From Nonomuraea jiangxiensis (GTDB lineage: Bacteria > Actinomycetota > Actinomycetes > Streptosporangiales > Streptosporangiaceae): a stretch of 64,000 nt of DNA. Made by a program: the position numbers and the translations under genes. The DNA is taken from contig NZ_FNDJ01000010.1 in assembly GCF_900099965.1 (NCBI RefSeq), forward strand, positions 124,001 through 188,000, read 5' to 3'. A model generated the notes under the pieces. It saw only the letters and a list, made by a program, of their open reading frames with translations. It did no database searches and was not told where the DNA came from. Shown here in pieces: positions 22,649-39,339 of this stretch; the stretch's first letter is position 1; the number at the start of each line of letters is the position of its first letter.

Positions 22649-22724
22649 GGGGCGTTAGCTCAATTGGCAGAGCTGCGGACTTTTAATCCGTAGGTTCCGG
22701 GTTCGAGCCCCGGGCGCCCTACCA
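22649..22724 (+). tRNA. tRNA-Lys (TTT)
   Basis: Acceptor GGGGCGT/GCGCCCT (with wobble pairs), D-arm GCTC/GAGC, anticodon stem GCGGA/TCCGT with loop CTTTTAA (anticodon TTT), T-arm CCGGG/CCCGG, discriminator A at 22721 and encoded CCA. A tyrosine integrase gene begins ~190 bp beyond its 3' end, so it is the likely insertion site of the following island. No second copy of its 3' end was spotted further right in this window. Confidence 0.93.
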
Positions 22725-22915
22725 CTCATAACCCATGTCGAAAGCGCTTTCTCGAGGTGGCAACACGGCCTGGCGGGACCGTCACGAAGATCATGTTCCC
22801 CCGATGTTCCCGCATATCACCACGCGATGGTGAAAGTCCGTTTGTTGATGCGAGTCGTGGCCGTCTGTGCCAGCTCTTTCCTCCACCATGCGTCTTCGGA
22901 CAGTTAGGGGGAGTT

Positions 22916-24319: not shown

Positions 24320-24353
24320 CGGAACTCCCTGCCGCCAGATCCAAAGGCCTCAC

Positions 24354-24796
24354 GTGAATTCGTCCACGCCTCTTCGTGAGAGTACCTGTCAAGCACTGCC
24401 ACGTTCAGCGTCTGCTTGGCTGCATGAGAGAATCACGCAGGATAGGTCCGTGGACCTGTGGGCCGATTGGGACGACGCGGTCGAACTACGGATGCAGTTG
24501 GACGCCACATTGGTCGAGATCACAGAGCTACGTGAGGAGAACGACTAGCTCAAGCAGCTGCTCCTGCCGCTAACCACGGCCTCGGCGATCGCGGCACGTA
24601 AATCCTGTCCAGCCCCCTCCATTCCCGTCGATTGGCCACAGGATGGCTTGCCGTATATGGACGCATCATCGTCTCCGGCCGAGAAGCTGGCGTTGTTCAA
24701 AGCGATGTTCGTCGGCCACCACGACGTGTACGCGACCCGCTTCTTTATCCGCAAGTCCGCAGGGACGGGTGAAGCCCGGCAAAAAGGGAGTTCTGA
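24354..24796 (+). pseudogene. N-terminal fragment of a TOTE conflict-system primase-like protein
   Basis: One frame, interrupted by TAG at 24546-24548, reads a coiled N-terminus (LRMQLDATLVEITELREEND then stop, then LKQLLLPL) followed by SSPAEKLALFKAMFVGHHDV and YATRFFIRK. The latter matches the start of the archaeo-eukaryotic primase domain that Pfam names after TOTE conflict systems (SPxEKIALFRSLFRGRxDVY, from memory). The rest of the primase and the helicase are absent. It is a remnant of an earlier defence gene inserted behind the integrase. Confidence 0.55.
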
Positions 24797-25117
24797 GTGT
24801 TGCCGCTGCCGTCGGTCTTGATCACAGCTCCGCGAGCACGCGAGCTCGTCCTCCGAGTCCATGACAACGGGCCCGGCATCTCCCCATCGGCGGCGTCCTC
24901 GATCTTCGGCCGCTCACCTGCGGCGAGGCCTGGCGTTCCTGCCAAGCTGACAGCACGGACGTGGGACTCTCCATCGTCACGGCGGTCACCGAGCGCACGG
25001 GCGCGTCGAGGTGACGAGTTTCCCGGCGACATCGTCTTCGCGGTAAGACTCCTTGCCGTCCCAGATGGAACGCCCCTGCCCGAGGATGACGACGAACCCG
25101 GCCGGGACCGATTGTGA
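24797..25117 (+). pseudogene. C-terminal fragment of a sensor histidine kinase (HATPase)
   Basis: ELVLRVHDNGPGISPSAASSIF is the N/G1-box of a HATPase_c domain. The G2 region follows in a shifted frame (VGLSIVTAVTERTG), and the original frame resumes as GDIVFAVRLLAVPDGTPLPEDDDEPGR. At least two frameshifts are present, and everything before the ATP-binding domain is missing. This is a decayed DcuS/CitA-type kinase tail with no response regulator beside it. Confidence 0.6.
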
Positions 25118-25157
25118 GATGCTCCGATCAGTGGATCTGCGAGGCGGCGGGGAGGCC

Positions 25158-27911
25158 ATGGACGAGTCCCATCACCAGGCCGCGGCCAGATCATCAGCCG
25201 GTGGGGCGAGAGCTGCGCGTGGCCTCACCTTCCAGGCTCAGGTTTTCGCCTGGTGGGCCGTGCGCGCCATCGTGGAGATGCCGCTGACCGAGCTCGGGCT
25301 CGGCGCCGCCGTCCGGATAGAAGCGGTGGGGTGCGAGACCGGACTCCCCGTCGACGATGTGGGCGTCACCGTGTCCGGCGGCGGGTTCATCCTCATACAG
25401 GCGAAGGCCGGGATGAGACGGCTGGACGCGCAGACCGAAGATCTGGTGAAGGCCATCGACCAGATAGTGCGCGCCTTCGTCGGCGGTATCCACACGAGTT
25501 CGGGCGTCCGCCCTGTCGACCTCTCGCGAGACCGGCTCGTGATCGCCACGAACCATGATGGGAGCCGCGCCTTCGACCAGCTGGGCATCGTGCTCCTGCG
25601 CCTCCGTGGACACCCGGCCGACCTCCCCCTCCGGGCAGCGGCGTCGACGATCGCCCAGCGGAGGGCGCTCGAAACCTTCGTCGAGGTCGTCGTAACCCGT
25701 TGGACGGCCATCATCGGTCGCAAGCCCTCCGATTCCGACTTGCGAGCGTTCCTGCGGTGCGCCGAGGTCATCCGGCTGGATCTCAAGAAGCCCGACGGAA
25801 TCGACCTCTTCCGCAGCGAGCAGGCTCTGCGCGCGGCTCTGGGTGACTCGCTCATCGACGAACCCTTCAGCAAGCTCGCCGGGCGCGGCGGCGAAGCAGC
25901 GGCGGCCCAGCGGTGGTGGCGGCGGCAGGAACTGGTCCAGGCCGTGCTTCGCGAGGAAGCGCCGATGCAGCCCGCGGCCGGTCCGCGACGCAACTGCCTT
26001 CCTGTCCTCCCTCAGCCGTACGTGCGCCGCGGCGACTACGATCTGCTCGACGCCGGACCGACGGCGGAGCGTCGCTGCATTGCTGTCACCGGCGGCCCCG
26101 GCTTGGGAAAAACCACTCTCGCCATCAACATGGCCAACGAGGCTGCCCAGGACTTCCCCGACGGGCAGTTGTTCGTCGACTTCCGAGGCTTCGGTCCGAC
26201 CGCCCCCATGTCGTCCGCCGAGGCGGTCGAGGTGCTCCTGGAACAGATGGGCGAGGCCGATGCGGCCGCAGGAAAGGACCCGGAAGGCCGCCGACTGCAC
26301 TACCTAGACGCGGTGGGGGCGAGGCGGTTCGTCATCGTCATGGACAACGTCCGGGACAGCGAGAGCGTCCTCCACCTGCTCCCGCGCCACGGGCCTTCCG
26401 CCATCATCGCTACCAGCCGCACCAGGTTGGGGACCCTCCTGCGGGGAACCGACGTCACGCACCTCCACCTGACTCCACTACCGACCCACGAATCCCAGGA
26501 TCTGCTGATCCGGCACATAGGCGCCGACCGAGCAGCCGCCGAGCCCGCCGCGATCGCCACCGTTCTGGCCGCCTGCGGTGGCAATCCTCTAGCCCTGGCA
26601 ATCGCCGGATCCCACATCCGGCACCTACCCGGGCTGTCACTGGACCAGATCGTGTCCGTTCTGACCGACGCCGACAGCCGACTGGACTTCCTCGACCTGC
26701 ACGAGCCGAACTCCGCGCTCCGCACCGTCTTCTCCTGGACGTATCTCGCACTTCCTGCCGAGCTGCGGGATTTCTTCGTCCTGGTCGGCGCGGCCCCGGG
26801 CCCTGACATCGACAGCACGGGAGCCGCCGCGCTCGCCAGCCTCGAGGACGCTCGAACAGGGTTGGCCCTGCTCCGCCGGTTACGCCATTTCCACCTGCTC
26901 CAAGAGAACGCGCACGGCGGCTTCCAGATGCACGAGCTCCTCCGTGACTACGCCCTCTCCCTCTGCCGTGGGGATCGGCGCCTCCAAGACGTCCACGACC
27001 GTGCCTGCGAAAGGCTCATCAAGCACTACGCCGACCTGGCCGCCGCCACAAGCCCCGGCACCCGTCTCGCTAGCCAGGACTCGCCGCGTTTCCTCGCCGC
27101 CGTGCGGTACGCCGAGGAACATGGTTTGGAGGGCAAGGCCCAGGCAATCGTGGACTCTCTCATCGAGAACATGTGGTACCACGGGCGATGGAACGACTGC
27201 GCGACGATGTTGCGCTCGATCACGGACGATCCATCGAAGCCCGAGGACCCAGAGATCCGGTCCTACTTCCTCCGCCAGTTGGCCATCACCCTGCGCCGGC
27301 TGGGAGCCCACGCCGAGAGCGTCGAGTACGGCCGGCAAGCCTTGACGACGCTGGGGCCGGGACGTTCGGCACGCGCGGAAGCCGACTGCCGCTATGTCTT
27401 GGCGGTCAGTCACTCCTACGCGGAGGATCACGAGGCGGCCCTGAAGCAGTACGGCCTCGCCGCCAACGGATTCCGGGAGGCTGGAGCCCATAGCGCGCTC
27501 GCGGACGCCCTGAACGGCATCGGCTGGAGCCTGGCCATGCGGGGAGAACACCAGGAGGCCCTGATGTACTGTACGCGGGCCGCCGACCTGCACGGCGAGC
27601 TGAACGTCCCCAACAGCCGGGCAGCCGATCTCGACAGCATCGCTTGCATCTACCAGTTCCTCGGCGATCACAAGGCCGCGCTCGGCTATTTCGAGCAATG
27701 CCTTCGCCTGTACAGGGAGATCGGCTACCGCGCCAACGAGGTCCGTACGCTGGACAGCATGGGTAACAGCGCGCTGGCGACAGGCGACCGGAACAGCGCC
27801 GTCGAGCACTGGCTCCTCGCCATCGCCATTCTTGAGGACATTGGTCTCGGGGACACCGACCAGGTCCGCGAGATACGCGCCAAGGAGGCGGCGGCATTGT
27901 TCCAGAAATAG
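25158..27911 (+). CDS. STAND NTPase with N-terminal nuclease-like domain and TPR sensor
   Basis: 917 residues from ATG 25158 (GGGGAGG upstream). Residues ~20-110 contain LTFQAQVFAWWAVRAI, PVDDVGV and FILIQAKAG. This D...QxK layout is that of a Cap4/DUF4297-like PD-(D/E)xK nuclease. The NB-ARC-type STAND core follows: Walker A GGPGLGKTT near 311, Walker B RRFVIVMDN near 390, sensor IIATSRTRLG, and CGGNPLALAIAG. A winged-helix and TPR repeats fill ~680-917. TPRs usually sense the trigger and the N-terminus is the effector, as in antiviral STANDs. It is convergent with a protein kinase gene. Probable antiphage or abortive-infection protein. Confidence 0.8.
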   Translation: MDESHHQAAARSSAGGARAARGLTFQAQVFAWWAVRAIVEMPLTELGLGAAVRIEAVGCETGLPVDDVGVTVSGGGFILIQAKAGMRRLDAQTEDLVKAIDQIVRAFVGGIHTSSGVRPVDLSRDRLVIATNHDGSRAFDQLGIVLLRLRGHPADLPLRAAASTIAQRRALETFVEVVVTRWTAIIGRKPSDSDLRAFLRCAEVIRLDLKKPDGIDLFRSEQALRAALGDSLIDEPFSKLAGRGGEAAAAQRWWRRQELVQAVLREEAPMQPAAGPRRNCLPVLPQPYVRRGDYDLLDAGPTAERRCIAVTGGPGLGKTTLAINMANEAAQDFPDGQLFVDFRGFGPTAPMSSAEAVEVLLEQMGEADAAAGKDPEGRRLHYLDAVGARRFVIVMDNVRDSESVLHLLPRHGPSAIIATSRTRLGTLLRGTDVTHLHLTPLPTHESQDLLIRHIGADRAAAEPAAIATVLAACGGNPLALAIAGSHIRHLPGLSLDQIVSVLTDADSRLDFLDLHEPNSALRTVFSWTYLALPAELRDFFVLVGAAPGPDIDSTGAAALASLEDARTGLALLRRLRHFHLLQENAHGGFQMHELLRDYALSLCRGDRRLQDVHDRACERLIKHYADLAAATSPGTRLASQDSPRFLAAVRYAEEHGLEGKAQAIVDSLIENMWYHGRWNDCATMLRSITDDPSKPEDPEIRSYFLRQLAITLRRLGAHAESVEYGRQALTTLGPGRSARAEADCRYVLAVSHSYAEDHEAALKQYGLAANGFREAGAHSALADALNGIGWSLAMRGEHQEALMYCTRAADLHGELNVPNSRAADLDSIACIYQFLGDHKAALGYFEQCLRLYREIGYRANEVRTLDSMGNSALATGDRNSAVEHWLLAIAILEDIGLGDTDQVREIRAKEAAALFQK

Positions 27912-27936
27912 CCGTCGCCGGGCAAGCGGAAGCGAT

Positions 27937-28057
27937 ATACTGGCGCAGTAGCTCAGCTGGCCGAACGCTCCGCGGTTTCCCGCGGAAACTCCGAGAATCG
28001 GGAGGCGCCATGGCGAAGAAAAAGCGACCCACGAATCCGAAGCGGCCGATTCGATAG
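27937..28057 (+). other. structured tRNA-like leader plus a 15-codon basic mini-ORF
   Basis: After a -10-like ATATAC/TATACT (about 27935-27941), GGCGC (27942-27946) can pair with GCGCC (28005-28009). Between them lie AGTAGCTCAGCTGG, resembling a tRNA D-arm, and a perfect 7-bp hairpin (27969-27975 with 27980-27986). The segment runs into GGAGG and ATG 28010, encoding MAKKKRPTNPKRPIR and ending TAG 28055-28057. It may be a decayed tRNA, a regulatory leader, or a tiny basic peptide gene; none is established. Confidence 0.3.
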
Positions 28058-28063
28058 TATACA

Positions 28064-28091
28064 GACGGGCGAGCAGACTTCCTCGCCCGTC
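28064..28091. terminator. bidirectional terminator hairpin
   Basis: GACGGGCGAG (28064-28073) and CTCGCCCGTC (28082-28091) form a perfect 10-bp stem with an 8-nt loop, followed on the plus strand by ATTCTTTCC. It sits between the convergent STAND and kinase genes. The right arm overlaps the kinase stop codon. Confidence 0.75.
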
Positions 28092-29406
28092 ATTCTTTCC
28101 CCGACTCGTATCTCCTGAGCAGCTCACGCACTTCCAATGCCCGTTTGTCCCGTCTGCCCAGTTTGAGGTCGAAAACCCGGAGCATGTCCCTGAGCTCGCC
28201 GACCGCCGCGCCCACGCGCCCCGCGGCGTGGAGCCACTCCGCGTAAAGCAGCCAGGCCCGTACGGCCCCTTTCCCCACATCGCCCTGCTCCCGCCTGGCC
28301 TCCTCCATCACGTGCTCAACAAGACGGAGTGCCGCGTCACGGTCACCCAAGTCCCAGAGCTCGCGCGCGCGTCCCAGCTGTGCATCTCCCACCGACATGG
28401 CGACCCCCGCCACCGCGACCATCGGCGGCCGGAAGCTATCGTCCGGTCGCGCGAGCGGAGCGAACGGCGTCCTGAACGGCAGCGTGACATCGAACTTCGC
28501 GGGATGGCCGATACCCGGAGAACCTGCCGCGGGGACATGCCTCCTCATCAGGGCCGACACCTCACGGGCGCCGACGAGGCGCTCCGCCGGATCCTTGATC
28601 AGCAACCGGTCGACCGCCTCACCCAGATCTCGCGGAACCGTCGGCCTCCGTTCGCACAAGGGCTGCGGGTCCTTGTACAGATGCGCGGCGTCGAGGTCCG
28701 TAGCTGTGGCCGCGCGGAACACAGGTCCCCCCAGCAGCTCGTATACGACGATTCCCAGCGCGTATAGATCGGCCGCCGTGCCTCCCGGGCTAGCTCCCTT
28801 CAGAACCTCCGGCGCCACGTATCCACTCGTTCCCGGGCTGGAGTACCTACTCCTGGTAATCCTCGACTTCTCGGAGTCGACGATGAACGCCACACCGAAA
28901 TCGATGATTTTGATCATTCCCGAGGGACCGACCATGAGGTTCGCCGGCTTGAGATCGCGGTGCACGACGTTCGCGTCATGCGCCACTGCGAGCGCCGAAC
29001 ACAACTGCACGGCCAGACACGCCGCCTCCTCCGGTTCAAGGAAGCCACCCCGCTCCTCCTGCAGGTCCTCGACGGTCTTGCCCTCGATGTACTGCATCAC
29101 GAGGTAGGGCATCTCCCCTCCCGAGGAGCCGCGCCAGACGCCCCGGTGGTGAACGGCCGGGATCGCCGGGTGATCGAGAGCAGCCGTCGCCAGGCCCTCC
29201 CGTTCGAATCGTCGGCGCAGGTCGTGGTAGTCCTCCGTCGAGATCACATCAGTCTCGCCGATGACGGACTTCTCGATCATGAACTTGATCGCGACCTTCC
29301 GCTCGAAGTCCTCGTCCCATGCGAGCCAGACGTCGCCCATCCCTCCGCGCCCCAGCCTGCGTTTGAGTTCGAAACGGTCGTGGATTGTGTCCCCGACGTC
29401 CACCAC
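28090..29406 (-). CDS. soluble Ser/Thr protein kinase with a helical C-terminal domain
   Basis: 438 residues. Kinase motifs: glycine loop LGRGGMGDVW, Lys in VAIKF, catalytic VVHRDLKPANLMV, DFGV, and GYVAPEVLKG. The C-terminal ~120 residues are TPR-like helices with no TM segment, unlike the PknB/PASTA kinases. The start is GTG 29406 or 29403 behind AGGAGG. It is convergent with the STAND gene and divergent from the pPIWI_RE operon (107 bp between starts), so it could control either. Defence-associated kinases are known, but a role here is inference. Confidence 0.85.
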   Translation of the reverse strand: MVDVGDTIHDRFELKRRLGRGGMGDVWLAWDEDFERKVAIKFMIEKSVIGETDVISTEDYHDLRRRFEREGLATAALDHPAIPAVHHRGVWRGSSGGEMPYLVMQYIEGKTVEDLQEERGGFLEPEEAACLAVQLCSALAVAHDANVVHRDLKPANLMVGPSGMIKIIDFGVAFIVDSEKSRITRSRYSSPGTSGYVAPEVLKGASPGGTAADLYALGIVVYELLGGPVFRAATATDLDAAHLYKDPQPLCERRPTVPRDLGEAVDRLLIKDPAERLVGAREVSALMRRHVPAAGSPGIGHPAKFDVTLPFRTPFAPLARPDDSFRPPMVAVAGVAMSVGDAQLGRARELWDLGDRDAALRLVEHVMEEARREQGDVGKGAVRAWLLYAEWLHAAGRVGAAVGELRDMLRVFDLKLGRRDKRALEVRELLRRYESGKE

Positions 29407-29513
29407 ACCTCCTGTGCGGCTGCCCCAAGCAGCCAGAAAGCCTTTTGGCCGGTAAATTAATCGGCTCTTATGTGCAGCGAAAGCTATGCTAACCTGACGT
29501 CCCCGGAGGTCAA
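29407..29513. promoter_or_regulatory. divergent promoter region of the kinase and pPIWI_RE operon
   Basis: An AT-rich 107-bp spacer. Plus-strand -10 candidates are TATGCT (29485-29490) and TAACCT (29490-29495). GGAGG (about 29503-29507) precedes ATG 29514. No clear -35 or operator was recognised. Confidence 0.4.
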
Positions 29514-31241
29514 ATGAGCCCGTCGAACCACGAGCGCGACAACGCCGTCATCCGTATTTACAGCAGCTCGGCCACAACTTCTCCGAAGAGTTGTCCGACC
29601 TACCTGGCCGCCAAAACTGACTACTCCGTGAAACGGTCGGAAAGAAAAAAGTCTTCACGTTTCGCCAGCATGGCTTTCTCGCCCTTCAGTGCCGTCCTCG
29701 AACTCGTCGAAAACTACCAGGTCCCGCTGGATGAAGCCTTCTCGCATCTTCCCCTCCGCGGCGACGCGGCGCGTGACATCGCTGGCGAGCTGATTGCCCC
29801 GCTACACGAGGGGCTGCTGGCGTGGACACATGACGCGGTGCGCAACTACCTTCGCGCGCTCGAAGAGGACCGGCACCTCCAGGCCGCGGTCGGTCTCCGG
29901 CCAGCCGGGCCCTGGGTGCGGCAGTATCCATCCAGCGACGCCGTCGTCAACTCCCGTACCCGTGAGCTCTGCGCGTGGGGACGCGGCTACATCTATCGCC
30001 ACGGAAACGACACCGTCCGCGAGCTCCGCATCCCGGCCATGGGCAAGGCGGGCGCCAAGCGACGAGCCGACGCGGAGCTGGCCACCGCCGCCCACGTGCT
30101 GGCGACGGGATCGTGTGTCGACCGGGATGTCGTGGACAGGAAACGGGGCCCATACCGCGGCGGCAAGCCGTTCCCGCTCCTTCCGTTTACCGCTTCGTCC
30201 CCTGCCGCCGCGCTCCCGAGCCGGGTCCGCCTCGTGGAGATCGGATGCGTGGACGGGCTACCGCAGGTGCTCTACGACGATACGACCGAAGCCGCCGAAT
30301 CCTTCTTCATTTCGAAGGCCGCCGACACTCTGAGCGCGCTCCACCGTCCGGTCACGGAGATTGCGGGACGAGACTGCCTTGACTGCAAAATCCGGTCGGA
30401 GTGCCGTCGGCTCCACAGCGCTCCCGGGTTCTTGGACATCCGAGACTCGTCCCACCCGAGACGGATCTGGTCGGCGACGACCGGGAGATACTTCGACGAC
30501 TGTCCCGCCAAGGCGCATTTCCGCGCGCTAAGCCTCCCACCCGACGAGGAGTCCGAGAAGACCGCGTTCGTACGCCGGGGTGATGCCGTCCACGCGTGGC
30601 TGAAGCGGCTGCACAGCAGGAAACCCAGAAGGCCATGCGCTCCAGACGACCTCCCGGAGAGCCCTGACTCCTGGTCGGCGGGCGAGTGGACTTTGGAAGG
30701 CGAGCACGCGCGGCATGGAGCGGCGATGCTCGCGGCCCACTTGGAGGTGTGCCCCTTCCTGGACACGGCGCCCGACAGCATCGCCTACCCCGAGCAGACA
30801 GTAGCCGCCGACGACCGGCATGCGGACGTCCTCATCGTGGCGGACGCCGATCTACTCTATCGGCGCGACGGTTCGTGGGTGTACCGCGAGCTGAAGACCA
30901 CGGCAGGCGATTTCGTGGCCGACGGCGCCGACCTGCTGACCCGGTACCAGCAGCTCGCGCTCGCCGTGCTTCTGTTCAAGGCCGGGGCGATTCCCGCGGG
31001 CCCACGCTCCGCCGTCGAGCTGGAGCTGCTCACCCCTGTCGGACCCGACATCCGGGTGATTGACCCAAACTCGACGTCGGTTCAGGAACGGGCCAGAGAT
31101 ACGATCCACGGCCTCACCCGGCGCTGGCACGCGGACGAGGAATATCTCCCGACGCCCAGCGAGAAGGCCTGCGGCCGTTGCTCCTACCAGCGATGGTGCC
31201 CGGTCTCGCCGAGGAACACACCGGACCGGAGCGCTCCATGA
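29514..31241 (+). CDS. RecB/Cas4-like PD-(D/E)xK nuclease with Fe-S-type cysteines, pPIWI_RE operon gene 1
   Basis: 575 residues, ATG 29514 behind GGAGG. The C-terminal half holds the nuclease core: ADVLIVADADLLYRRDGSWV then YRELKTTAGDF, giving D...ExK with Glu/Lys near 458-460, and the helix DLLTRYQQLALAVLLF. Two Cys clusters, CLDCKIRSEC (~285-294) and CGRCSYQRWC (~551-560), resemble the 4Fe-4S ligands of Cas4/AddB/RecB-like nucleases. The N-terminal half (~1-280) is unassigned. The stop overlaps the next start (ATGA, 31238-31241), showing translational coupling. It probably supplies a DNA nuclease to the system. Confidence 0.8.
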   Translation: MSPSNHERDNAVIRIYSSSATTSPKSCPTYLAAKTDYSVKRSERKKSSRFASMAFSPFSAVLELVENYQVPLDEAFSHLPLRGDAARDIAGELIAPLHEGLLAWTHDAVRNYLRALEEDRHLQAAVGLRPAGPWVRQYPSSDAVVNSRTRELCAWGRGYIYRHGNDTVRELRIPAMGKAGAKRRADAELATAAHVLATGSCVDRDVVDRKRGPYRGGKPFPLLPFTASSPAAALPSRVRLVEIGCVDGLPQVLYDDTTEAAESFFISKAADTLSALHRPVTEIAGRDCLDCKIRSECRRLHSAPGFLDIRDSSHPRRIWSATTGRYFDDCPAKAHFRALSLPPDEESEKTAFVRRGDAVHAWLKRLHSRKPRRPCAPDDLPESPDSWSAGEWTLEGEHARHGAAMLAAHLEVCPFLDTAPDSIAYPEQTVAADDRHADVLIVADADLLYRRDGSWVYRELKTTAGDFVADGADLLTRYQQLALAVLLFKAGAIPAGPRSAVELELLTPVGPDIRVIDPNSTSVQERARDTIHGLTRRWHADEEYLPTPSEKACGRCSYQRWCPVSPRNTPDRSAP

Positions 31242-32164
31242 CGGACGATCCATTCCCCTCGTCCGCGCCCACCGCCTTCGACCACGCCACAGGCGAGGCG
31301 TACGACGAGGCTGAGTCCCGGCGCATCATCGGCATGGTGGCCGCGACGGTGGCGCAGCTGGCGGACTGGCCGAAGGAGGAGGCTTTCAGCGTTCCTTACC
31401 CGCCGCTGGCCCAGCGCGTGCTCGACCGCATCGCCCTCATCGGCGTCCTGAGACACCCCGGTGGATTTCACCTGACCCCCTACCGCGAGCACCTGAGCTG
31501 CCCCCGGACCCTCGCCGATCTCATGGCCCTCTGCTGGAGCAGCCCCATCGACGCGTGGCCGTTTCTCAGTCTTCCCGACGGCGAAGACCTGACCGGGCTG
31601 CTCGTCGAGCTCGATCCGATCCGGCCGTCGAAGCTCTGCCTCAGGCTCGCCCTGAAGTTTGCCCACCCGGACGCCCACGACAGAAGCCTGGAACGGCTCG
31701 CCCTGCTGGAGGCGCGTTCACTCTACGAAGAGTCCGGCTACCCCGGCGGCTTCCCGGAGTTGCGCGAATGGTTGATCGCCCATCCCGTCTTGTCCAGCCA
31801 GGAGATCGCCTTCCTGAAGCTGGAGCGAATCGGCGGCGTCCAGGTGACCGACGAACTGATCAACATCCTCTACCTCCGTGTTCACGAGCGATACTTCAGC
31901 CTCACAGACGAGATAGCCGTCTGTGGCCACTGCGGCCTGGTCCTGGTGCCCGTCAGAGGCGGCTCCGGAGAAGGCTGGCAGTGCGAGACCACGCAGTGCC
32001 GCAGTCGGCGCAACGTACTGGTCGGCGCCGTGCGCCATGTTGCCGAGAACCTCCACCACGCTGCCCGGCCGATCCGCGAGTTTGTTATCGCAGGCCCCCG
32101 GCTCCGCGCCTCGGAAGACTCCAGCCGCCAAGCCCCAAGCCCACTCAGGGACGTCGAATGCTGA
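31238..32164 (+). CDS. pPIWI_RE-island zinc-ribbon protein (restriction-endonuclease-related), short form
   Basis: 308 residues from ATG 31238. Sequence blocks such as YPPLAQRVLDRIALIGVLRH, LTPYREHLSCPRTLADLMAL and RPSKLCLRLALKFAHP lead to a zinc ribbon: CGHCG near 228-231 and C...TTQC near 248-253. I associate this with domain Y of the pPIWI_RE three-gene island, usually followed by a REase domain. Here the protein stops ~40 residues after the ribbon in an unremarkable tail (GPRLRASEDSSRQ...). The REase core is therefore missing, either by natural architecture or truncation. Its role may be DNA binding or complex assembly. It sits between the nuclease and helicase genes. Confidence 0.7.
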   Translation: MTDDPFPSSAPTAFDHATGEAYDEAESRRIIGMVAATVAQLADWPKEEAFSVPYPPLAQRVLDRIALIGVLRHPGGFHLTPYREHLSCPRTLADLMALCWSSPIDAWPFLSLPDGEDLTGLLVELDPIRPSKLCLRLALKFAHPDAHDRSLERLALLEARSLYEESGYPGGFPELREWLIAHPVLSSQEIAFLKLERIGGVQVTDELINILYLRVHERYFSLTDEIAVCGHCGLVLVPVRGGSGEGWQCETTQCRSRRNVLVGAVRHVAENLHHAARPIREFVIAGPRLRASEDSSRQAPSPLRDVEC

Positions 32165-32173
32165 AAGACTCGC

Positions 32174-35100
32174 ATGCGTAACCTTCGCGACCACCTCCGT
32201 GAGGCGTTGTCGGTCATCCCTGCTGCGGAAGCCTCCGAATACGACGATCTACGCAAGAGGCTCGACTACACCGTCGAGCTCGGGCTCCATGTCATCGAGC
32301 TGGTCAGCCCGCAGCTCGCTCCCATCGACGGATGGGCCTTGTTCGGCGGGTATCCCTTCTCCCGCGCTCGAGGCCTTGTCGCGAGCCGCCCGGACGACAG
32401 GCTTCGCCGTATCCTGCGCGCGGCCCGGTACCACCTGGAGTCCATGCACCGGCGGGAGGTCTGGCGTTCCGCCCTGCTGAGGTACCGGCACCTGCCGGAG
32501 CGGCACCGCATGTACGACTTCGCAGAAAGCCTGGCCTGGCCAGCGGTTCAGAGACAACCCTCGCTCGCAGCGCATCGCCTGGAGCTGTACGACGCCCTTC
32601 TGAGCTCTGCGCCGCCCTTCACCACGAGCCGAATCACCATTGCGGATCCGGGTCCGCATCTCTTCCACGGGCGCACCATCGGTGCTCAGCACATCACCAT
32701 CCCCGAAGACTTGCCGCCGCAGGTGGACTCCCGTCTTCCTATGGAGGCCCAGCACCTCCGGGAGCCCTTCAACCAACCCGTGGAATCGCTCCGGCAGACC
32801 GCCAAGAAGATGGCGAAGCTCGACCAGCCGAATCAGGGCCAGTCCAAGGCACTCACCGACTGGGAATCACGGTATCTCGGCATGGAGCTCTCCACGCTGG
32901 ACGAGGAGAGCGGGCGCTTTGCCAAAGCCGATCGGCTGGTCGTCGACGGTCTGCTCAACCTCATCGGGATTCCAGGAGTGGGCAAGAGCACACTGCGCGA
33001 CATCCTCGCCACGCACGCAGTGGCTGAACTGGGACAGCGCGTCGTCCTCGTCGTCGGCGACGTCGCCGAGGCGCTCCGTGTGGCACAGGTCTTCAACAAG
33101 TTGCGTGAGGCGGCCGACCGAAAGATCGAGGAAGGCGACAAGACGTACGCCGGATGGGACAGGCTGCACGCGATTCCCCTCATCGGAGCATCCACCCGTG
33201 ACCAGCACACCAGACGGCTGCACCGGCGGCTCCGGCAGGTCTCTCCGCTGCCCCTCCTGCATCAGGATGCCGCGTTCGCCTACCTGAGCACCGCCTGCCC
33301 GCTCAGCGCGCTGCGGGGTGCGGAGGCGGACGGGCCTCTGCCGTACCTTGAGGCTCCATGCCAGTCACTGATCCCACTGGACCAACCCCCCCAAGGGGGC
33401 GAGTCCGCGGCCGACCTCGCGGAGGAGAAGCGGAAGCCCCGGCGGGGATGTCCGATCTGGAGCCACTGTCCGAGGCATGATGCCGCACGAGGGCTCCGTG
33501 AGGCGACCATCTGGGTCGCCACTCCGGAGGCGCTCACGGTCTCGTCGGTGCCCGTTCAGCAGAACCCTGAACGCATCCGCTACCTGGAGCTGGCCTGTAG
33601 GACCGCAGACCTACTGATCGTCGATGAAGCCGACCAGGTCCAGATCAGGTTGGATCACCTGTTCGCCCCGACCGCGACGTTGTACAAGCGGGGCGACGAC
33701 TCCTGGCTGGACGAGATCAACCGGCACAATGTCGCCGAGTTGGCACGCGAGGGGCGCATCCAGCTCTCAAACGAGATGGTCCAGCAATGGACCGCCGCGC
33801 TGGACACCGTATCGACCGCGGCCAATCGCATCTACGCCATGATCGTGAGTGATGACGAACTTCGCGAGTGGCTGGGGTCGGATCTCTTCACCGTCTGGTC
33901 GCTCCAGCTCGAGCTCGTCGGCCAGTGGCCCGCGACCCGGCTGCCCGACCGGGTTCCGTCAGCAGCCGAGTGGGTGAACCCCAAGCACGAAACGAGGCAG
34001 GAGGCGAGCGCGAAGCTGCTGGCCTACCTGAGCCAGGACCCTGGCGTCGCTCAGGAGTCCCGCGACAAGCGGCGCGAAGCGATCCTGAAGATACTCGACG
34101 GCTTCCGAGACGATCCGGTTGGCGACAATGACGAGACCGAGCTCTCCGACGACGCGCCGGCCAGGGAGACACTCCAGCTCGCGGAGCTCGCCCGACGCCT
34201 GGTCACCAGCAGGCCGGGCAGCCCGAGGGTAGCCGAGGAGCTCAATGGCCTTCTTGCCCAGCTCGCGGGCTTGCGTGACCCTGAGGAGCTTTCCGGCAAC
34301 GATCTGAACGCCGAGGTGAGGGAAAACGTCAAAGAGGAGCTCCGTCGGGAACGTCGCAGGTTCGAGTTCACGCTGCTTGTGGCAATCCTGCATGACCGGC
34401 TGAACCTACTGACGACGCTCTGGCCCAGAGTGGAGATCGCGCTCAATCTCGATCCCTCCGCCAACGCGCTCTACCACAGCTCCCCGACCGACTACGCTCC
34501 GGTGATCCCCGAGTCCCCCATGGGCAACATCCTGGCGTTCCAGTTCGTCCCCGACGCCAGGGACGTATATACCAAGACGGGCGAGCTGAGGTTCATCCGG
34601 TGCACAGGGGTGGGCCGCGAGCTTCTGTCCGTCCTTCCCACCCTGCACACCGTGGACGGCAGCCATGGACCCAACGTGGTGCTGATGTCCGGGACGAGCT
34701 GGGCAGGCGCATCCACCCGCTATCACCTGGCCGAGCCGGTGAAGGCGGTGCTGCATGCCAAGGCACGCGTAGAGGAGCCGAAGAAGCCCTCCAACCCGGA
34801 GATCGCCATGTTCACGTCCTTCGTCTATGACGCCGTCGAGGGTGCCTCATCACGCGACCCCATGAGACCGCTGCAGCTCTCCGGCACGTCGTCCGATCGG
34901 AACGACGTGTTATGGAAGATGCTTCGCGGCCTCGCCGATCCGGATCCGGCGGACCAAGGTGGGCGTTCCAGGTTCACGCAAGAACTCGGAAACCTACCGC
35001 CCGGCCGTCAGCACCTGCTCATACTCACCGGCAGCTATAAGGACGCCAAAGAAGCGGGCCGGGCTCTCCAGAGCTTCAGAGAGTGGAGGGACAGGATCTG

Positions 35101-35899
35101 CGTCCTCATCTCAGATGACGAAGAGGCCGCCGACGTCCCGCGCCACGACCAGGACAGGAGCCGAGACGCTCCCACGCTCCGTCGCGGCGACCTCGCCACC
35201 TTCGGCGCGACCAAGTACACCATCCTCGTCGCACCGCTCCAGTCGGTCGAACGAGGACACAACATTCTCAACGATCAGGAGAAGGCGCTCTTCGGATCGG
35301 TCTACTTCCTGGCCCGTCCCCTTCCCACGCCTAGCGACGTCAGCGTACTCATCCACGCGCTCAACGACCTGACCGTCCGCCGTACCCGTCCCGGCGGTAC
35401 CTTCGACGAGCTCGTCCAGAGCGCCATGTCGCTGGACGCCGCCGGCCTGGAATGGCGGAAGCAGGCGCGCAGGGAACTGCACTGGCTGGCCAACCGGCAT
35501 CTGATGTGGAAGCGACTGAGCGACAGCGACCGCGAGTACCTCACGTGGGATCTGCTCGTGGTGATGTGGCAGGTGATCGGCCGGTTGACCCGGGGTGGCG
35601 TGGGTGCTCGCGTGCATTTCGTGGACGCGGCCTTCGCTCCCCAGCGCGCCGCCGGACTTCGCGGGGATAGCCCGCGCTCCAGTCTGCTGGTCAGCATGCG
35701 CGACGTCCTGGCCCCGTACTTCGGGGACGCGCCGGATTGGCAGCGCCGTCCCGCTCCTCCACACCGGCTCCCAGCGACCGAGGCGAACATCTATCTCGCG
35801 GGTGCCCTCTACCGGCCGCTCTACGACGGCCTGAAAGAGCTTCTGCTGGGGTCTCCCGAGGCCGCCCCCCTCCATGGCGACGAGAGGAGATGGCGATGA
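32174..35899 (+). CDS. DinG-like Fe-S superfamily 2 helicase of the pPIWI_RE island
   Basis: 1241 residues, ATG 32174, 9 bp after the previous gene. Residues ~1-255 are an island-specific N-terminal domain (pPIWI_RE domain Z, from memory). Walker A is GIPGVGKST near 265. A Cys set (C in STACPLSALRG, APCQSL, and RRGCPIWSHCPRHDAARG near 425-431) fits an XPD/DinG 4Fe-4S cluster. DEAD-like LLIVDEADQV is near 482. The motif VI-like QVIGRLTRGG is near 1133. DinG/XPD enzymes unwind DNA or R-loops 5' to 3', which could expose single strands to the PIWI protein and nuclease. The stop overlaps the pPIWI start (ATGA at 35896-35899). Confidence 0.82.
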   Translation: MRNLRDHLREALSVIPAAEASEYDDLRKRLDYTVELGLHVIELVSPQLAPIDGWALFGGYPFSRARGLVASRPDDRLRRILRAARYHLESMHRREVWRSALLRYRHLPERHRMYDFAESLAWPAVQRQPSLAAHRLELYDALLSSAPPFTTSRITIADPGPHLFHGRTIGAQHITIPEDLPPQVDSRLPMEAQHLREPFNQPVESLRQTAKKMAKLDQPNQGQSKALTDWESRYLGMELSTLDEESGRFAKADRLVVDGLLNLIGIPGVGKSTLRDILATHAVAELGQRVVLVVGDVAEALRVAQVFNKLREAADRKIEEGDKTYAGWDRLHAIPLIGASTRDQHTRRLHRRLRQVSPLPLLHQDAAFAYLSTACPLSALRGAEADGPLPYLEAPCQSLIPLDQPPQGGESAADLAEEKRKPRRGCPIWSHCPRHDAARGLREATIWVATPEALTVSSVPVQQNPERIRYLELACRTADLLIVDEADQVQIRLDHLFAPTATLYKRGDDSWLDEINRHNVAELAREGRIQLSNEMVQQWTAALDTVSTAANRIYAMIVSDDELREWLGSDLFTVWSLQLELVGQWPATRLPDRVPSAAEWVNPKHETRQEASAKLLAYLSQDPGVAQESRDKRREAILKILDGFRDDPVGDNDETELSDDAPARETLQLAELARRLVTSRPGSPRVAEELNGLLAQLAGLRDPEELSGNDLNAEVRENVKEELRRERRRFEFTLLVAILHDRLNLLTTLWPRVEIALNLDPSANALYHSSPTDYAPVIPESPMGNILAFQFVPDARDVYTKTGELRFIRCTGVGRELLSVLPTLHTVDGSHGPNVVLMSGTSWAGASTRYHLAEPVKAVLHAKARVEEPKKPSNPEIAMFTSFVYDAVEGASSRDPMRPLQLSGTSSDRNDVLWKMLRGLADPDPADQGGRSRFTQELGNLPPGRQHLLILTGSYKDAKEAGRALQSFREWRDRICVLISDDEEAADVPRHDQDRSRDAPTLRRGDLATFGATKYTILVAPLQSVERGHNILNDQEKALFGSVYFLARPLPTPSDVSVLIHALNDLTVRRTRPGGTFDELVQSAMSLDAAGLEWRKQARRELHWLANRHLMWKRLSDSDREYLTWDLLVVMWQVIGRLTRGGVGARVHFVDAAFAPQRAAGLRGDSPRSSLLVSMRDVLAPYFGDAPDWQRRPAPPHRLPATEANIYLAGALYRPLYDGLKELLLGSPEAAPLHGDERRWR

Positions 35900-38622
35900 A
35901 GTACGAATCGATCACCCTGACCGCCTACCAGCCCTCAGAGAACTCACTGGTCAAGCCCTTCCAGGTTCTGCATGTCCCGAAAGAGCTACGGGCGGCGTTC
36001 GAGAAGGCCCATCGGTCCGGGCTCGGCGACACCCCTGCCGACAAGGTGAAGACCTTTCCTATCAGGTCACTCAATGCGCTCCTTCCCCTGGCCGCACCGG
36101 ATGTGATCTCGGTGGGCCGGCGGGTCTCCATGGAGGACGACGTCCCTTGGCTCTACGCGCATCACCCCGTGGACGACCGGATCGTCCGAGGGCTGCTGGG
36201 AGTCTGGCTCCTCGGCATGCGCGGCGACGAGGACCTCCGTAAGCACGCCTACAGCCTGCTCAGGAGGACCGCCCTGCCATGGCGGACCAAGTTCGTCGAT
36301 CTGGCCGGGCACGTCTTGAGCGACGGGGAGACCGCCCAGCCCGAGCCACCCTTGTACCACCTGCTTCCCGACTACTTGGCCCGCCTCATCCAGCGGCATG
36401 GCGAGTTCAGGGGAGCGAACGGACGTTCCTGGTCGTTTCTCGAGACCCCGATCACCGACCGGCGAGCGCAACTCGTTTCATGGCCCCCGCGTGGCGATCT
36501 GTCGGAAACGCCAGGGGCGCTGTTCTCCTACGTCATTACCATCACGGTGCAGACCGTGCCGTTCACCTCGCAGTTCCGGCTGCACGTGCGGACGGGCGTC
36601 CGGCGCTGGGTGACCGAAGTGAACGCCCAGGGCACCGTCTACACAGCAGGCCGGTCGGCGTCCGTGCACGTGATCACTGACACGCAGTGGCCCGGAGTAT
36701 CGGGAGACAGCACCCGGATCGCGATCCACCAGCTTCGCTACGACTCCAGGAGAGCCGAGCACACGTGGCGGGCCATCGACAGGCCGGACCTGCTCCCAGC
36801 AGCCAGCCTGGTGCGCTCCGCGGTGGACGCGGCGGATCTGGGGAGGAACCCCAGAAAATACCTTGAGGGACTCGCGGGCATCAGGGCTGGAATTCCCCAC
36901 CACACGACCATGGGAACCCACGGAGTGGGCGCCGGGCTCATGTCCGCGGACAGAGTACCGCTCATGGCGTGGATCGACGAGGCAATCTCCCCCGAGTTCA
37001 CCCGTACCCCCGTTTGCCATCGCGCTCTTTGGCCCGCCAAGCCGTCCAACGCGCCGACGAAGCTCCTGGCACCCAGAAAGGTAAACGAGGCCGATCGCGT
37101 GCGGATCCTGGAGCACAAGAAGGTAGAGCAGGCGGCCAAGGAGGCCGTCGAACGACGCCGACTGCTCCGGGAGGCACTCGATGGCGCACCGCTGGTCGCC
37201 CGCGTCCATTGGCAGGAGGAAGGGACCCGCGACGCCCTGGTCTCGTCCCTGAGCGGATTGCTCGGCCTGCCCGCGCCGGACAGCGCGAAAGAAACCCTCA
37301 CATGGCGAACGCCAGAGCTCGACGTGATCCTGCAAGTACGGCCCACCGGGGACATCGGCGCCGCGCTGGAGGTCAGCGCTACCAAGACACCCAGCAGCGA
37401 ACAGTTGGGCGAGGCCATCGCCAAGCGGCGGAGCGAGATCGCGGACGCCATGAACGACGAAGCCGGACCCAGGCCGCTGGTCGCGCTGGTAGAGATCGAG
37501 AAAGATTTCAAGATCAAGCGTTCCGACTCGAAGTTCGCCGCCCGGCTGGGCTACGCCGATGCCGGAGTGATCACGCAGTTCCTCCAAACCGCCGTAGACA
37601 AGGCTCTGATAAAGAACCGTCCCCACCGCGCGAAGATGGCGTGGATCGACGCGTTCCGACAGCTCGGAGCCTCACGCGTCCCGCGGCACACCTTCGTGGA
37701 CACATTCCCAGGGGACCTGCAGTACGTCGCGGTATGGATGGCGAAACGCAGGAAGGACGGCCCCACCCGCCAGGCCATCCGGCAACTGCTCGCCATCAGA
37801 GTGCGTCCGGCCGACGGCGTACGTGGAGTGTCGGGCTGGATCGAGGACGAACGCCGCTGGGCGCCCTACCCCGAGTATCTGCTGTGGCTGGCCAAAGGCG
37901 TCGACTCCCACGCCTCCGCAGACGAGATCGCGGCGGACGACGAAGCTGCTGAGGACGGCACCCAGAGCTCCTTCTCCCAGTGGGACAAAGAGCAGAAGAA
38001 CTTGCAGAGGAGAACGGCGGCCTTTCTCCGGCCGCTGCTGGCGCAGCTACGCGATCGGCCGACGCTCTTCATGGTGCATGCGCAGAATCTCCGTGGGGGC
38101 TGGCCGTGGCTGAACAACGGCATGGTCATGCGGGACCACATCTGGGTCGACGACGGTGACCCCGTGCCCGTCGCCCTTTGGGGCAACCGGCTGCGCCTCC
38201 TGCGGGTGAGGGACAGCAGCCGCGACGAGACCCCTCAGTGGTACGCCACGGACGGCAACCACGGCATCCCGGCCGGCCTCTGGCCCCTCACCGAGGCGCA
38301 TGGCGAACGGGTCTTCTACAGCTCCACGGATAGACCCAGCACCGCGAAGAAGGCGTCCATCAAGGCACGGAAGGAGGGTGTGCGGATTGACCGGACGGGC
38401 AAGGAAGTCCGGGACACCGACAAGAACGCCTTCAACCCCAATCTGCTGGAGATCGCGGTCCTCGCCTGCCAACGCGGAGAAGAGCCCGGCGAGTGGGCCG
38501 CCTGCGTCCACCAGTTGCGCCACGCACCCGACATCGACGCGCCCCTGGCCCTTCCCTTCCCTCTTCACCTAGCGAAGAAGGCCGTGGAGTATGTGCTTCC
38601 CAACACCAAGGACGATGCCTGA
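35896..38622 (+). CDS. pPIWI_RE protein (X domain, MID, RNase H-like PIWI)
   Basis: 908 residues. ATG 35896 is preferred over ATG 35890, as GAGGAG lies 6 nt upstream and it makes an ATGA overlap with the helicase stop. The N-terminal ~400 residues match the pPIWI_RE X region; the middle (~480-640) is MID-like. The C-terminal third carries the family's conserved blocks: GWIEDERRWAPYPEYLLWLA, FSQWDKEQKNLQRRTAAFLR, HAQNLRGGWPWLNNG, DETPQWYATDG and FNPNLLEIAVLACQ. The family is named for conserved Arg and Glu in the PIWI domain. By family knowledge it should bind nucleic acid, possibly guide-loaded, and act with the helicase and nuclease against foreign DNA or R-loops. Confidence 0.85.
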   Translation: MKYESITLTAYQPSENSLVKPFQVLHVPKELRAAFEKAHRSGLGDTPADKVKTFPIRSLNALLPLAAPDVISVGRRVSMEDDVPWLYAHHPVDDRIVRGLLGVWLLGMRGDEDLRKHAYSLLRRTALPWRTKFVDLAGHVLSDGETAQPEPPLYHLLPDYLARLIQRHGEFRGANGRSWSFLETPITDRRAQLVSWPPRGDLSETPGALFSYVITITVQTVPFTSQFRLHVRTGVRRWVTEVNAQGTVYTAGRSASVHVITDTQWPGVSGDSTRIAIHQLRYDSRRAEHTWRAIDRPDLLPAASLVRSAVDAADLGRNPRKYLEGLAGIRAGIPHHTTMGTHGVGAGLMSADRVPLMAWIDEAISPEFTRTPVCHRALWPAKPSNAPTKLLAPRKVNEADRVRILEHKKVEQAAKEAVERRRLLREALDGAPLVARVHWQEEGTRDALVSSLSGLLGLPAPDSAKETLTWRTPELDVILQVRPTGDIGAALEVSATKTPSSEQLGEAIAKRRSEIADAMNDEAGPRPLVALVEIEKDFKIKRSDSKFAARLGYADAGVITQFLQTAVDKALIKNRPHRAKMAWIDAFRQLGASRVPRHTFVDTFPGDLQYVAVWMAKRRKDGPTRQAIRQLLAIRVRPADGVRGVSGWIEDERRWAPYPEYLLWLAKGVDSHASADEIAADDEAAEDGTQSSFSQWDKEQKNLQRRTAAFLRPLLAQLRDRPTLFMVHAQNLRGGWPWLNNGMVMRDHIWVDDGDPVPVALWGNRLRLLRVRDSSRDETPQWYATDGNHGIPAGLWPLTEAHGERVFYSSTDRPSTAKKASIKARKEGVRIDRTGKEVRDTDKNAFNPNLLEIAVLACQRGEEPGEWAACVHQLRHAPDIDAPLALPFPLHLAKKAVEYVLPNTKDDA

Positions 38623-38889
38623 CCGCAGCTCAGACCGAGAAGGAGATCCGGATGGACGTTTGCTGTCGGCGTCGCGGTGCCCGTGGGGCTTCGTGTGACG
38701 ACGGTGGGGGGCGAGCCTGGGTTCGTCGTCGAGCCTCACGTCCCGTCTTCGGCCGTGGATCCAGATACCAGCTCCCGCGGAGATGAAGGAACGGCAAAAT
38801 GAGAACGGTCAAGGGACGGCGCCCACCCTGTCGTTGCTCGTTGGATGCTCTTCAGCATGTGGTACGGCGCACCACTGGCTGGAGCACGG

Positions 38890-39230: not shown

Positions 39231-39339
39231 TCATGCCGCATGGCTTCCCTGCGGCGGCTGAAGATCCCGGATATTGCGCAGAACACTACAACCGGGCCAA
39301 GACCTGGGCGGATGGAATTATCGGCAGACGCGCTGCCAG

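What the first reader, a model, noticed from the sequence alone, without database searches (positions are those of the whole stretch)
29514..38622. Complete pPIWI_RE operon with a separate Cas4/RecB-like Fe-S nuclease gene
Four genes are packed with ATGA or 9-bp junctions and a single upstream promoter region: Fe-S PD-(D/E)xK nuclease, zinc-ribbon protein, DinG-like Fe-S helicase, pPIWI_RE. Established: pPIWI_RE proteins with a DinG-type helicase and a REase were described computationally as a three-gene conflict island. Seen here: all catalytic motifs of helicase and nuclease, and the conserved pPIWI_RE blocks. Inference: a guide-dependent or R-loop-directed DNA interference system in which the first-gene nuclease replaces the usual linked REase. 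A four-component version with a Cas4-like enzyme may be a distinct subtype.
Basis: partly seen in the sequence, partly recalled or inferred. Interest (0 to 1): 0.92.

Follow-up and report, generated by a model that had tools for sequence, protein, structure and literature searches.

The report
Argonaute-helicase defence island with swapped effector
This bacterial DNA segment carries an Argonaute-like protein, a helicase, an adaptor and a Cas4-like nuclease next to a protein kinase and an alarm-type ATPase, and its relatives suggest that such probable antivirus systems come in two forms: one with a DNA-cutting domain plus, often, a DNA methylase, and one in which both are replaced by the ATPase.

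Summary
The four-gene operon is real: Cas4/AdnA-like Fe-S nuclease, pPIWI_RE_Y-zinc-ribbon protein, DinG-type helicase, pPIWI_RE. All four match PADLOC-DB "Ppr" models, so a separate nuclease gene is already catalogued. That it replaces the linked REase is not general: 75 of 104 distinct loci with this nuclease keep an intact REase; the window belongs to five loci where that domain is deleted. What tracks REase state lies outside the reported interval. A divergent Ser/Thr kinase adjoins the nuclease gene in 62 of 95 assessable loci of this lineage, and lies upstream in none of 31 loci without the nuclease. REase-intact loci often carry an N6-methylase (35 of 38 that have a kinase); REase-dead loci carry an NB-ARC/TPR (STAND) protein (26 of 29, against 0 of 68 intact, 64 of them with enough flank). 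The nuclease site is invariant in 104 of 104; the window's pPIWI_RE lacks both catalytic aspartates. Best reading: a six-gene mobile defence unit whose restriction arm was exchanged for a kinase-linked STAND protein. Few independent events support this; nothing was tested at the bench.

The parts
29514..31241 (+). gene 1, 575-aa Fe-S PD-(D/E)xK nuclease (PprPDDEXK): C-terminal AdnA/AddB/Cas4-like nuclease (D446, E459, K461; C330/C553/C556/C562), plus an N-terminal half with a second cysteine set (C27/C288/C291/C297)
   Evidence: Pfam/PADLOC; motifs invariant in 97 of 97 near and 7 of 7 distant loci, C27 in 96 of 97 (the other row is truncated) and 7 of 7; AlphaFold pLDDT 92.7; VIA-align Z 15.0 AdnA, 13.8 ACE1
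31238..32164 (+). gene 2, pPIWI_RE_Y + zinc ribbon, REase domain deleted
   Evidence: PF18156; PprRE only over profile 4-231/340; alignment shows the domain missing in WIN, L016, L017, L018, L073; zinc ribbon cysteines kept in 5 of 5
32174..35899 (+). gene 3, DinG-type Fe-S helicase with Z domain
   Evidence: PF18155, PprDinG; invariant motifs in 5 rows
35896..38622 (+). gene 4, pPIWI_RE (X, MID, RNaseH); predicted catalytically inactive (H728, and no Asp in the first RNase H strand)
   Evidence: AlphaFold pLDDT 87.1; Argonaute/PIWI and SPARTA/SPARDA fold matches
28090..29406 (-). divergent Ser/Thr protein kinase, PD-T4-6/mad6-like
   Evidence: Pkinase 1e-40; PADLOC PD-T4-6 1e-68, mad6 4e-57; adjacent and divergent in 62 of 95 assessable near loci
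25053..27911 (+). STAND protein: N-terminal domain with an E..DD..QxK motif (PDC-M54A-like), NB-ARC, TPR; start codon uncertain
   Evidence: HMM match in 26 of 29 near loci with lost or deleted REase, 0 of 68 REase-intact
24295..38879 (.). block collinear at 90% DNA identity with Nonomuraea solani (L016), probably one mobile unit
   Evidence: blastn
22649..22724 (+). tRNA-Lys, possible attachment site; its last 47 bases plus 10 more recur at 95% just after the block in N. solani
22757..24319 (+). tyrosine recombinase (phage integrase) next to the tRNA
   Evidence: PF00589 2.8e-12

Best explanation
The window holds a six-gene, ~14-kb mobile defence unit, an actinobacterial variant of the pPIWI_RE (Ppr) system: STAND> <kinase | nuclease> Y-ZnR> DinG> pPIWI_RE>. 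SHOWN by sequence comparison: the parts, their conserved linkage, the deleted REase, the invariant nuclease active site, and the association of lost REase with STAND and of intact REase with (often) a methylase. INFERRED: pPIWI_RE, without catalytic aspartates, holds a short guide and recognises invading nucleic acid; DinG opens the DNA or R-loop around it; Y-ZnR bridges them; the Cas4/AdnA-like nuclease trims or cuts DNA (guide supply or target resection). In REase-intact relatives recognition leads to cutting by the Y-linked REase, from which a linked methylase, where present, would shield the host. In this branch the REase was inactivated and then deleted, no methylase is found, and output passes instead to the kinase and the STAND protein, which here has a nuclease-like N-terminus and would act as the effector.
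For: Linkage: kinase adjacent and divergent in 62 of 95 assessable near loci; none upstream in 31 of 31 loci without the nuclease nor in 6 of 6 assessable distant-lineage loci. The host genome has 75 kinase-domain matches in 11.8 Mb, so by simple arithmetic a kinase within 600 bp by chance is expected in under 1% of loci (that one genome as guide). Exchange: STAND in 26 of 29 non-intact near loci, 0 of 68 intact (64 with at least 800 bp of flank in the slot); all 26 have the adjacent kinase. Methylase in 35 of 38 intact loci that hold a kinase and 0 of 26 STAND loci. In 32 of the 35 the methylase, and in 24 of the 26 the STAND, lies in the same slot, convergent to the kinase. REase catalytic loss arose 3 times on the 103-row helicase tree; the window's 5-row deletion clade (100*) lies inside a 25-row REase-lost clade (SH-aLRT 99). 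L126/L157, a separate loss, carry STAND on the other side, beyond the pPIWI_RE gene. REase intact in 31 of 31 loci without the nuclease gene. Nuclease motifs invariant. pPIWI_RE catalytic positions lost. Fold: AdnA, ACE1, AddB, Cas4.
Against: Counts are nested in phylogeny: only two independent STAND/REase-loss associations. The third REase-loss clade (L040, L043, L156) has a methylase, no STAND, and partly kept motifs (E-G-D-K, E-G-D-R, E-G-E-K). The earlier 90-row tree left open whether the deleted clade joins the degenerate one, so 'inactivated then deleted' rests alone. The two STANDs scanned from the larger REase-lost group have BTAD and a sub-threshold Trans_reg_C match, which suggests a transcription regulator rather than an effector. 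25 of 68 REase-intact loci show no kinase, methylase or STAND in reach (L009 and L029 among them lack flank), so none is obligatory and a REase without a visible methylase is common. Three of 31 loci without the nuclease have a generic methylase match over 110 bits and one a weak STAND match. HRD motif in 52 and DFG in 48 of 66 kinases, so some may be inactive. The host carries another methylase-kinase pair beside a PP2C phosphatase, with no pPIWI_RE core. No defence phenotype is known to me for any locus here; a published PIWI-RE deletion in Pseudomonas stutzeri changed ciprofloxacin sensitivity and cell division (PMC10991935, abstract and passages).
Confidence: 0.5

Rival explanations
1. One reading: the Cas4-like nuclease of gene 1 is itself the effector that replaced the REase; kinase and STAND are passengers.
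For: REase loss is seen only in loci that have gene 1 (29 of 104 against 0 of 31; Fisher 2.8e-4, not phylogeny-corrected; L046, also lost, cannot be judged for gene 1). Gene 1's active site is invariant and is the only predicted nuclease site left in the window's four-gene operon.
Against: 68 of 97 near and 7 of 7 distant loci have both nucleases; within the sampled near lineage gene 1 is present on both sides of each REase loss; loss tracks STAND more tightly.
Confidence: 0.25
2. Kinase and STAND form an AfsK/AfsR-like regulatory pair (names recalled) that controls expression of the operon; the core acts without a STAND effector.
For: All 26 STAND loci have the adjacent kinase; the two STANDs scanned from the larger REase-lost group have BTAD plus a sub-threshold Trans_reg_C, and N-termini of L126 and L157 look similar by eye (no Pfam match there). 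Kinase and gene 1 share a divergent 107-bp gap.
Against: The window clade's STAND has a different N-terminus with an E..DD..QxK motif, related to a candidate defence protein. Regulation alone does not explain the link with REase loss and methylase absence.
Confidence: 0.3
3. The pPIWI_RE operon serves replication or DNA repair rather than defence.
For: PsPIWI-RE deletion mutant: ciprofloxacin sensitivity and division phenotype (PMC10991935, abstract and passages).
Against: Patchy occurrence (6 of 396 phylum, 17 of 394 class, 49 of 250 family genomes), mobile setting, matches of the kinase and of relatives' methylases to defence-family models, plasmid-borne relatives.
Confidence: 0.1

Closest known systems
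pPIWI_RE three-gene island (Burroughs, Iyer and Aravind 2013, PMC3702460; abstract and section 6 read)
   Same: pPIWI_RE, DinG-type helicase and Y-domain protein in the same order, overlapping or close ends
   Different: Adds a first-gene Fe-S nuclease; the REase is deleted; kinase and STAND adjoin. The paper describes a REase without an associated methylase; here 40 of 68 REase-intact near relatives have one in reach
PADLOC-DB 2.0.0 'Ppr' models (PprPDDEXK, PprRE, PprDinG, PprPIWI)
   Same: All four operon proteins match
   Different: The PprRE match lacks the REase part; among the hits shown for kinase, methylase and STAND no model bears a Ppr name
Argonaute-associated Cas4 family protein ACE1 (PDB 9iac, 9iab; seen as PDB titles only)
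   Same: Cas4-type nuclease linked to an Argonaute; Z 13.8 over 233 residues
   Different: 12% identity; the window protein has an extra N-terminal half and a pPIWI_RE partner
AdnA/AddB/Cas4/Dna2 nuclease domains
   Same: Fold and cysteine/PD-(D/E)xK pattern
   Different: No fused helicase; the helicase is a separate DinG-type protein
MADS and PD-T4-6 (PADLOC names)
   Same: Kinase like PD-T4-6/mad6; relatives' methylase matches mad2 and, weakly, mad1
   Different: Best methylase match is a type I MTase model; other MADS components not sought; linked here to pPIWI_RE
SPARTA/SPARDA short Argonaute systems
   Same: PIWI-type protein with a separate effector (recalled); fold match Z about 12.5
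   Different: Different partner proteins; here a DinG helicase and Cas4-like nuclease

Membership tests
pPIWI_RE (Ppr) system | pPIWI_RE protein with X, MID and RNaseH domains | tested here: met
   PF13111, PF18157, PF13032 above cut-off
pPIWI_RE (Ppr) system | conserved Arg and Glu that name the family | tested here: inconclusive
   R770 and E852 lie where spacing to PsPIWI-RE R639/E718 predicts; not aligned to PsPIWI-RE itself; R in 62 of 81 and E in 75 of 81 four-gene rows
pPIWI_RE (Ppr) system | DinG-type Fe-S helicase with Z domain | tested here: met
   PF18155, PprDinG; motifs
pPIWI_RE three-gene island sensu Burroughs 2013 | Y-ZnR protein carrying a REase domain | tested here: not met
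   Y and zinc ribbon present, REase deleted
pPIWI_RE three-gene island sensu Burroughs 2013 | REase/Y gene is first in the operon | tested here: not met
   the Fe-S nuclease gene precedes it
PADLOC Ppr set | matches to PprPDDEXK, PprRE, PprDinG, PprPIWI | tested here: met
   PprRE partial
Cas4/AddB-type Fe-S nuclease fold | D..ExK site and four cysteines, one upstream and three C-terminal (arrangement recalled) | tested here: met
   (104 of 104); fold; iron itself not testable
CRISPR Cas4 proper (TIGR00372) | score over the curated cut-off | tested here: not met
   18.7 bits against 65
ACE1 (Argonaute-associated Cas4) | sequence family membership | tested here: inconclusive
   fold similar, no family model at hand
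restriction-modification | nuclease with linked methylase | tested here: not met
   no methylase found next to the window's operon; found in reach of 40 of 68 REase-intact near relatives
STAND NTPase (25053-27911) | NB-ARC domain plus repeat sensor | tested here: met
   PF00931 4e-9, TPR_12 7e-19
anti-phage defence | interference with phage or plasmid | not testable with these tools
   needs bench work

The most novel reading that the evidence does not exclude
Actinobacterial pPIWI_RE systems are kinase-linked and two-mode: a core of mostly inactive PIWI, DinG, Y adaptor and Cas4-like nuclease is coupled either to a REase guarded by its own methylase (restriction mode) or, after REase and methylase loss, to a STAND protein (alarm mode). 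The swap happened at least twice, and the window's clade is its end point, with the REase domain deleted and the STAND armed with its own nuclease-like domain: Argonaute-type recognition feeding a kinase and a STAND effector.
Probability: 0.35. Interest if true: 0.88.

Novelty: new variant of a known kind. Interest (0 to 1): 0.7.

Why it matters
pPIWI_RE systems were proposed in 2013 as RNA-dependent restriction (PMC3702460), and a 2022 study reports nuclease activity and a division phenotype (PMC10991935); I found no settled role. The linked kinase, methylase and STAND genes, and their relation to REase state, turn the operon into testable wiring: does the methylase protect from the REase, and does STAND take over when the REase dies? 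It also shows which nuclease is always kept in this lineage (the Cas4-like one). I found none of this linkage in the searches made, but the held library lacks most subscription papers.

Tried and rejected
Rejected: 'gene 1 replaces the REase' as a general rule (one search already showed both nucleases in L009 and L010). Rejected: minus-strand ORFs 24745-28280 as genes; they overlap the 952-aa plus-strand ORF, whose NB-ARC and TPR domains are recognised. Set aside before counts: L046 (gene 1 would lie off the contig), L112 (truncated helicase, no Y), L145, L150, L160, L162 (no helicase hit), L013 and L015 (partial PIWI hits; L013 overlaps L014), L009 and L029 (no room for the kinase test), duplicates L025, L108, L109, L111, L113, L119, L131, L134, L135, L158. 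L010 and L025 are the same locus. Of 56 places, 48 were fetched; the window itself and seven short or broken matches were not.

A first classification of the truncated Y proteins as 'degenerate' (four of the five) came from stray alignment of short tails; one search shows the domain absent, so they were recoded 'deleted'. Seven loci that my REase HMM missed (L048, L052, L054, L055, L056, L067, L081) do have a degenerate domain and were counted as lost. Against the reading: one of 31 loci without the nuclease, L143, gave a weak STAND match (21 bits, at the edge of the stretch); L014, L132, L143 gave generic methylase matches over 110 bits and L128 one of 27.5; L021 and L090, counted as without methylase, have matches of 67 and 150 bits. 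HMMs were built from these same loci, so sensitivity is best inside the lineage. Flank beyond the kinase or gene 1 is under 800 bp in L009, L029, L079, L080, and 800-2500 bp in 15 of 97 near loci.

No sequence match of note in solved structures for the STAND N-terminus (best E 0.44). Literature on ACE1 was not found (one search gave one paper, on Synechococcus Argonaute); what I say of ACE1 rests on PDB titles. The last paper search listed plant and fungal MADS-box and kinase papers only. In one search the twelve passages shown did not concern pPIWI_RE. Clustering of neighbours also gave groups confined to, or nearly confined to, loci without a kinase; those I did not identify.

Statistics: Fisher values treat related loci as independent and overstate the evidence; the tree gives three REase losses and two STAND associations.

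Full report
1. What is there. The four reported genes exist with the stated packing; gene 2 probably starts at 31238, giving an ATGA overlap. Pfam and PADLOC identify them as Fe-S PD-(D/E)xK nuclease (PprPDDEXK), pPIWI_RE_Y protein (PprRE, without its last third), DinG-type helicase with Z domain (PprDinG) and pPIWI_RE. The nuclease is not a CRISPR Cas4 by the curated model (18.7 bits, cut-off 65). The genome has one pPIWI_RE RNaseH match.

2. Gene 1 in relatives. A scan of the genome collection with a helicase alignment found 276 relatives and kept the best 80 loci, all actinobacterial by title; 79 have gene 1 upstream and the 80th is cut by its contig end. These were chosen for similarity. 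A less biased sample, 48 pPIWI_RE regions from the window's taxonomic family, has gene 1 in 28 (at least two of the other 20, L112 and L135, cannot be judged). After removal of duplicates 104 loci have gene 1: 97 in the window's lineage and 7 in a distant pPIWI_RE lineage. In 31 loci no gene 1 was detected, including nine plasmid loci from Streptomyces, cyanobacteria, proteobacteria and Hymenobacter.

3. Gene 1 anatomy. Invariant in 97 of 97 and 7 of 7: D446, E459, K461, Q480; C330, C553, C556, C562 (the AddB/Cas4 arrangement, recalled); C288, C291, C297; H367, C375, H409, C413; C27 in all but one truncated row. The AlphaFold model (pLDDT 92.7) matches AdnA (Z 15.0, 222 residues, 4.2 A), the Argonaute-associated Cas4 protein ACE1 (Z 13.8, 233, 4.1 A), AddB, Cas4 and Dna2. 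The N-terminal cysteine set suggests a second, degenerate Fe-S domain; that is inference. Two relatives on plasmids stand without a detected pPIWI_RE core.

4. The REase. Relatives L009 and L010 have gene 1 and an intact REase on the Y protein, so gene 1 does not by itself replace it. Scoring E, D, D, K of the REase: intact in 31 of 31 loci without gene 1, 7 of 7 distant and 68 of 97 near loci; lost in 24 and deleted in 5 near loci. The five are the window, Nonomuraea solani, Nocardiopsis chromatogenes and two Actinomadura; their zinc-ribbon cysteines are kept. On a helicase tree (103 rows, quick method) losses occur three times; the deleted clade (100*) lies in a 25-row REase-lost clade (SH-aLRT 99), in line with inactivation before deletion. 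An earlier 90-row tree supported the deleted clade (100*) but left its join to the degenerate clade open.

5. pPIWI_RE. In the window the strand-4 catalytic position is H728 and no aspartate stands in the first RNase H strand. Asp at the strand-4 position occurs in 7 of 81 four-gene and 6 of 12 other aligned rows; in columns 609-618 (strand 1) in 0 of 81 and 0 of 12. The position was assigned by alignment and by spacing to PsPIWI-RE D610 (PMC10991935, abstract and passages), not by direct alignment to that protein. Fold matches are Argonautes and SPARTA/SPARDA.

6. The neighbours. A collinear 14.6-kb block (24295-38879, 90%) is shared with N. solani. It includes a kinase (28090-29406, minus) and a 952-aa NB-ARC/TPR ORF (25053-27911, plus). 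The kinase is adjacent and divergent to gene 1 in 62 of 95 assessable near loci, about 2.2 kb away in 4, and not found upstream in 29; none was found upstream in 31 of 31 loci without gene 1 and in 6 of 6 assessable distant loci. The genome has 75 kinase matches in 11.8 Mb. HRD-type motif in 52 and DFG in 48 of 66 kinases, so some may be inactive.

7. The exchange. NB-ARC/TPR protein: 5 of 5 deleted, 21 of 24 lost, 0 of 68 intact near loci (its table also lists L046, not assessable); 64 of the 68 have at least 800 bp of flank in the slot. N6-methylase family (PF02384): 35 of 38 REase-intact loci with kinase (two of the other three end at the kinase), 5 of 30 without kinase, adjacent to gene 1, 0 of 26 STAND loci, 3 of 3 of the partly degenerate clade L040/L043/L156. 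Layouts: methylase> <kinase nuclease> in 32 REase-intact loci; STAND> <kinase nuclease> in 24 REase-lost loci; <kinase nuclease> ... pPIWI_RE> <STAND in L126 and L157; none of the three accessory genes in 25 REase-intact loci. The slot beyond the kinase thus holds a methylase or a STAND according to REase state, and L126/L157 are an independent case.

8. STAND types. The two scanned members of the larger REase-lost group (L067, L049) carry BTAD, and Trans_reg_C below its cut-off, before NB-ARC/TPR; the window clade instead has a domain with invariant E59, D65, D66, Q80, K82 (numbering of the piece aligned) in four members, related to the N-terminus of PADLOC PDC-M54A (2e-34). I read it as a PD-(D/E)xK-like nuclease by eye; no structure or Pfam match supports it.

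9. Mechanism. Shown: parts, linkage, exchange, motif loss. Inferred: guide-directed recognition by inactive pPIWI_RE; DinG unwinding (Burroughs et al. 2013 propose DNA-RNA hybrid recognition, PMC3702460 abstract and section 6); DNA processing by gene 1, for which a Cas4-like nuclease that, like the Argonaute, reduces plasmid transfer or maintenance in Synechococcus gives a loose precedent (PMC10653904, abstract and passages); output by REase with methylase protection, or by kinase and STAND.

10. Novelty. The triad is known since 2013 and the separate nuclease is in PADLOC-DB. The kinase, methylase and STAND linkage and its relation to REase state I did not find in the searches made. It is a new variant of a known kind. 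Limits: related loci, self-built HMMs, few independent events, no bench data.

Noticed in passing
window 22649-24319; L016:16798-16854: tRNA-Lys followed by a tyrosine recombinase; a 57-bp near-copy of the tRNA 3' end region lies just past the shared block in N. solani. An 86-base query found only one copy in the window's genome.
   Followed up: partly
L164:7059-10907 (G000:C24): In the same genome a methylase-kinase gene pair of the kinds seen beside pPIWI_RE lies divergent from a PP2C phosphatase, with no pPIWI_RE core in the 19.9 kb looked at.
   Followed up: partly
L096:10989-14691, L097:10536-14107: Relatives of gene 1 on Streptomyces and Rhodococcus plasmids without a detected pPIWI_RE core, next to a PIN_4-like protein (scanned in L096 only, below cut-off) and an ImmA/IrrE-type protease gene: perhaps another conflict module.
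   Followed up: partly
L102:9257-17173, L105:9364-17332: RNaseH/pPIWI_RE-type annotated proteins of over 3000 residues on Bradyrhizobium and Microvirga plasmids; an AAA_22 domain in the C-terminal part of the L102 piece scanned, none found in L105.
   Followed up: partly
L137, L139, L141, L142, L147, L148, L151: A distant pPIWI_RE lineage with gene 1 upstream, intact REase, and no kinase upstream (6 of 7 assessable), methylase or STAND found.
   Followed up: partly
L017 and L075; L023 and L058; L048 and L071: Nocardiopsis chromatogenes, Lentzea sp. NEAU-D7 and Streptomyces pinistramenti each carry two Ppr loci; the last two pair a REase-intact with a REase-lost type.
   Followed up: no
window 38845-39261: IS4/5-type transposase fragment (DUF4096) directly at the right end of the block shared with N. 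solani.
   Followed up: no
gene 1 residue 360: The position is His in 59 and Asp in 38 of 97 near-lineage nucleases, although the catalytic and cysteine positions are invariant.
   Followed up: no
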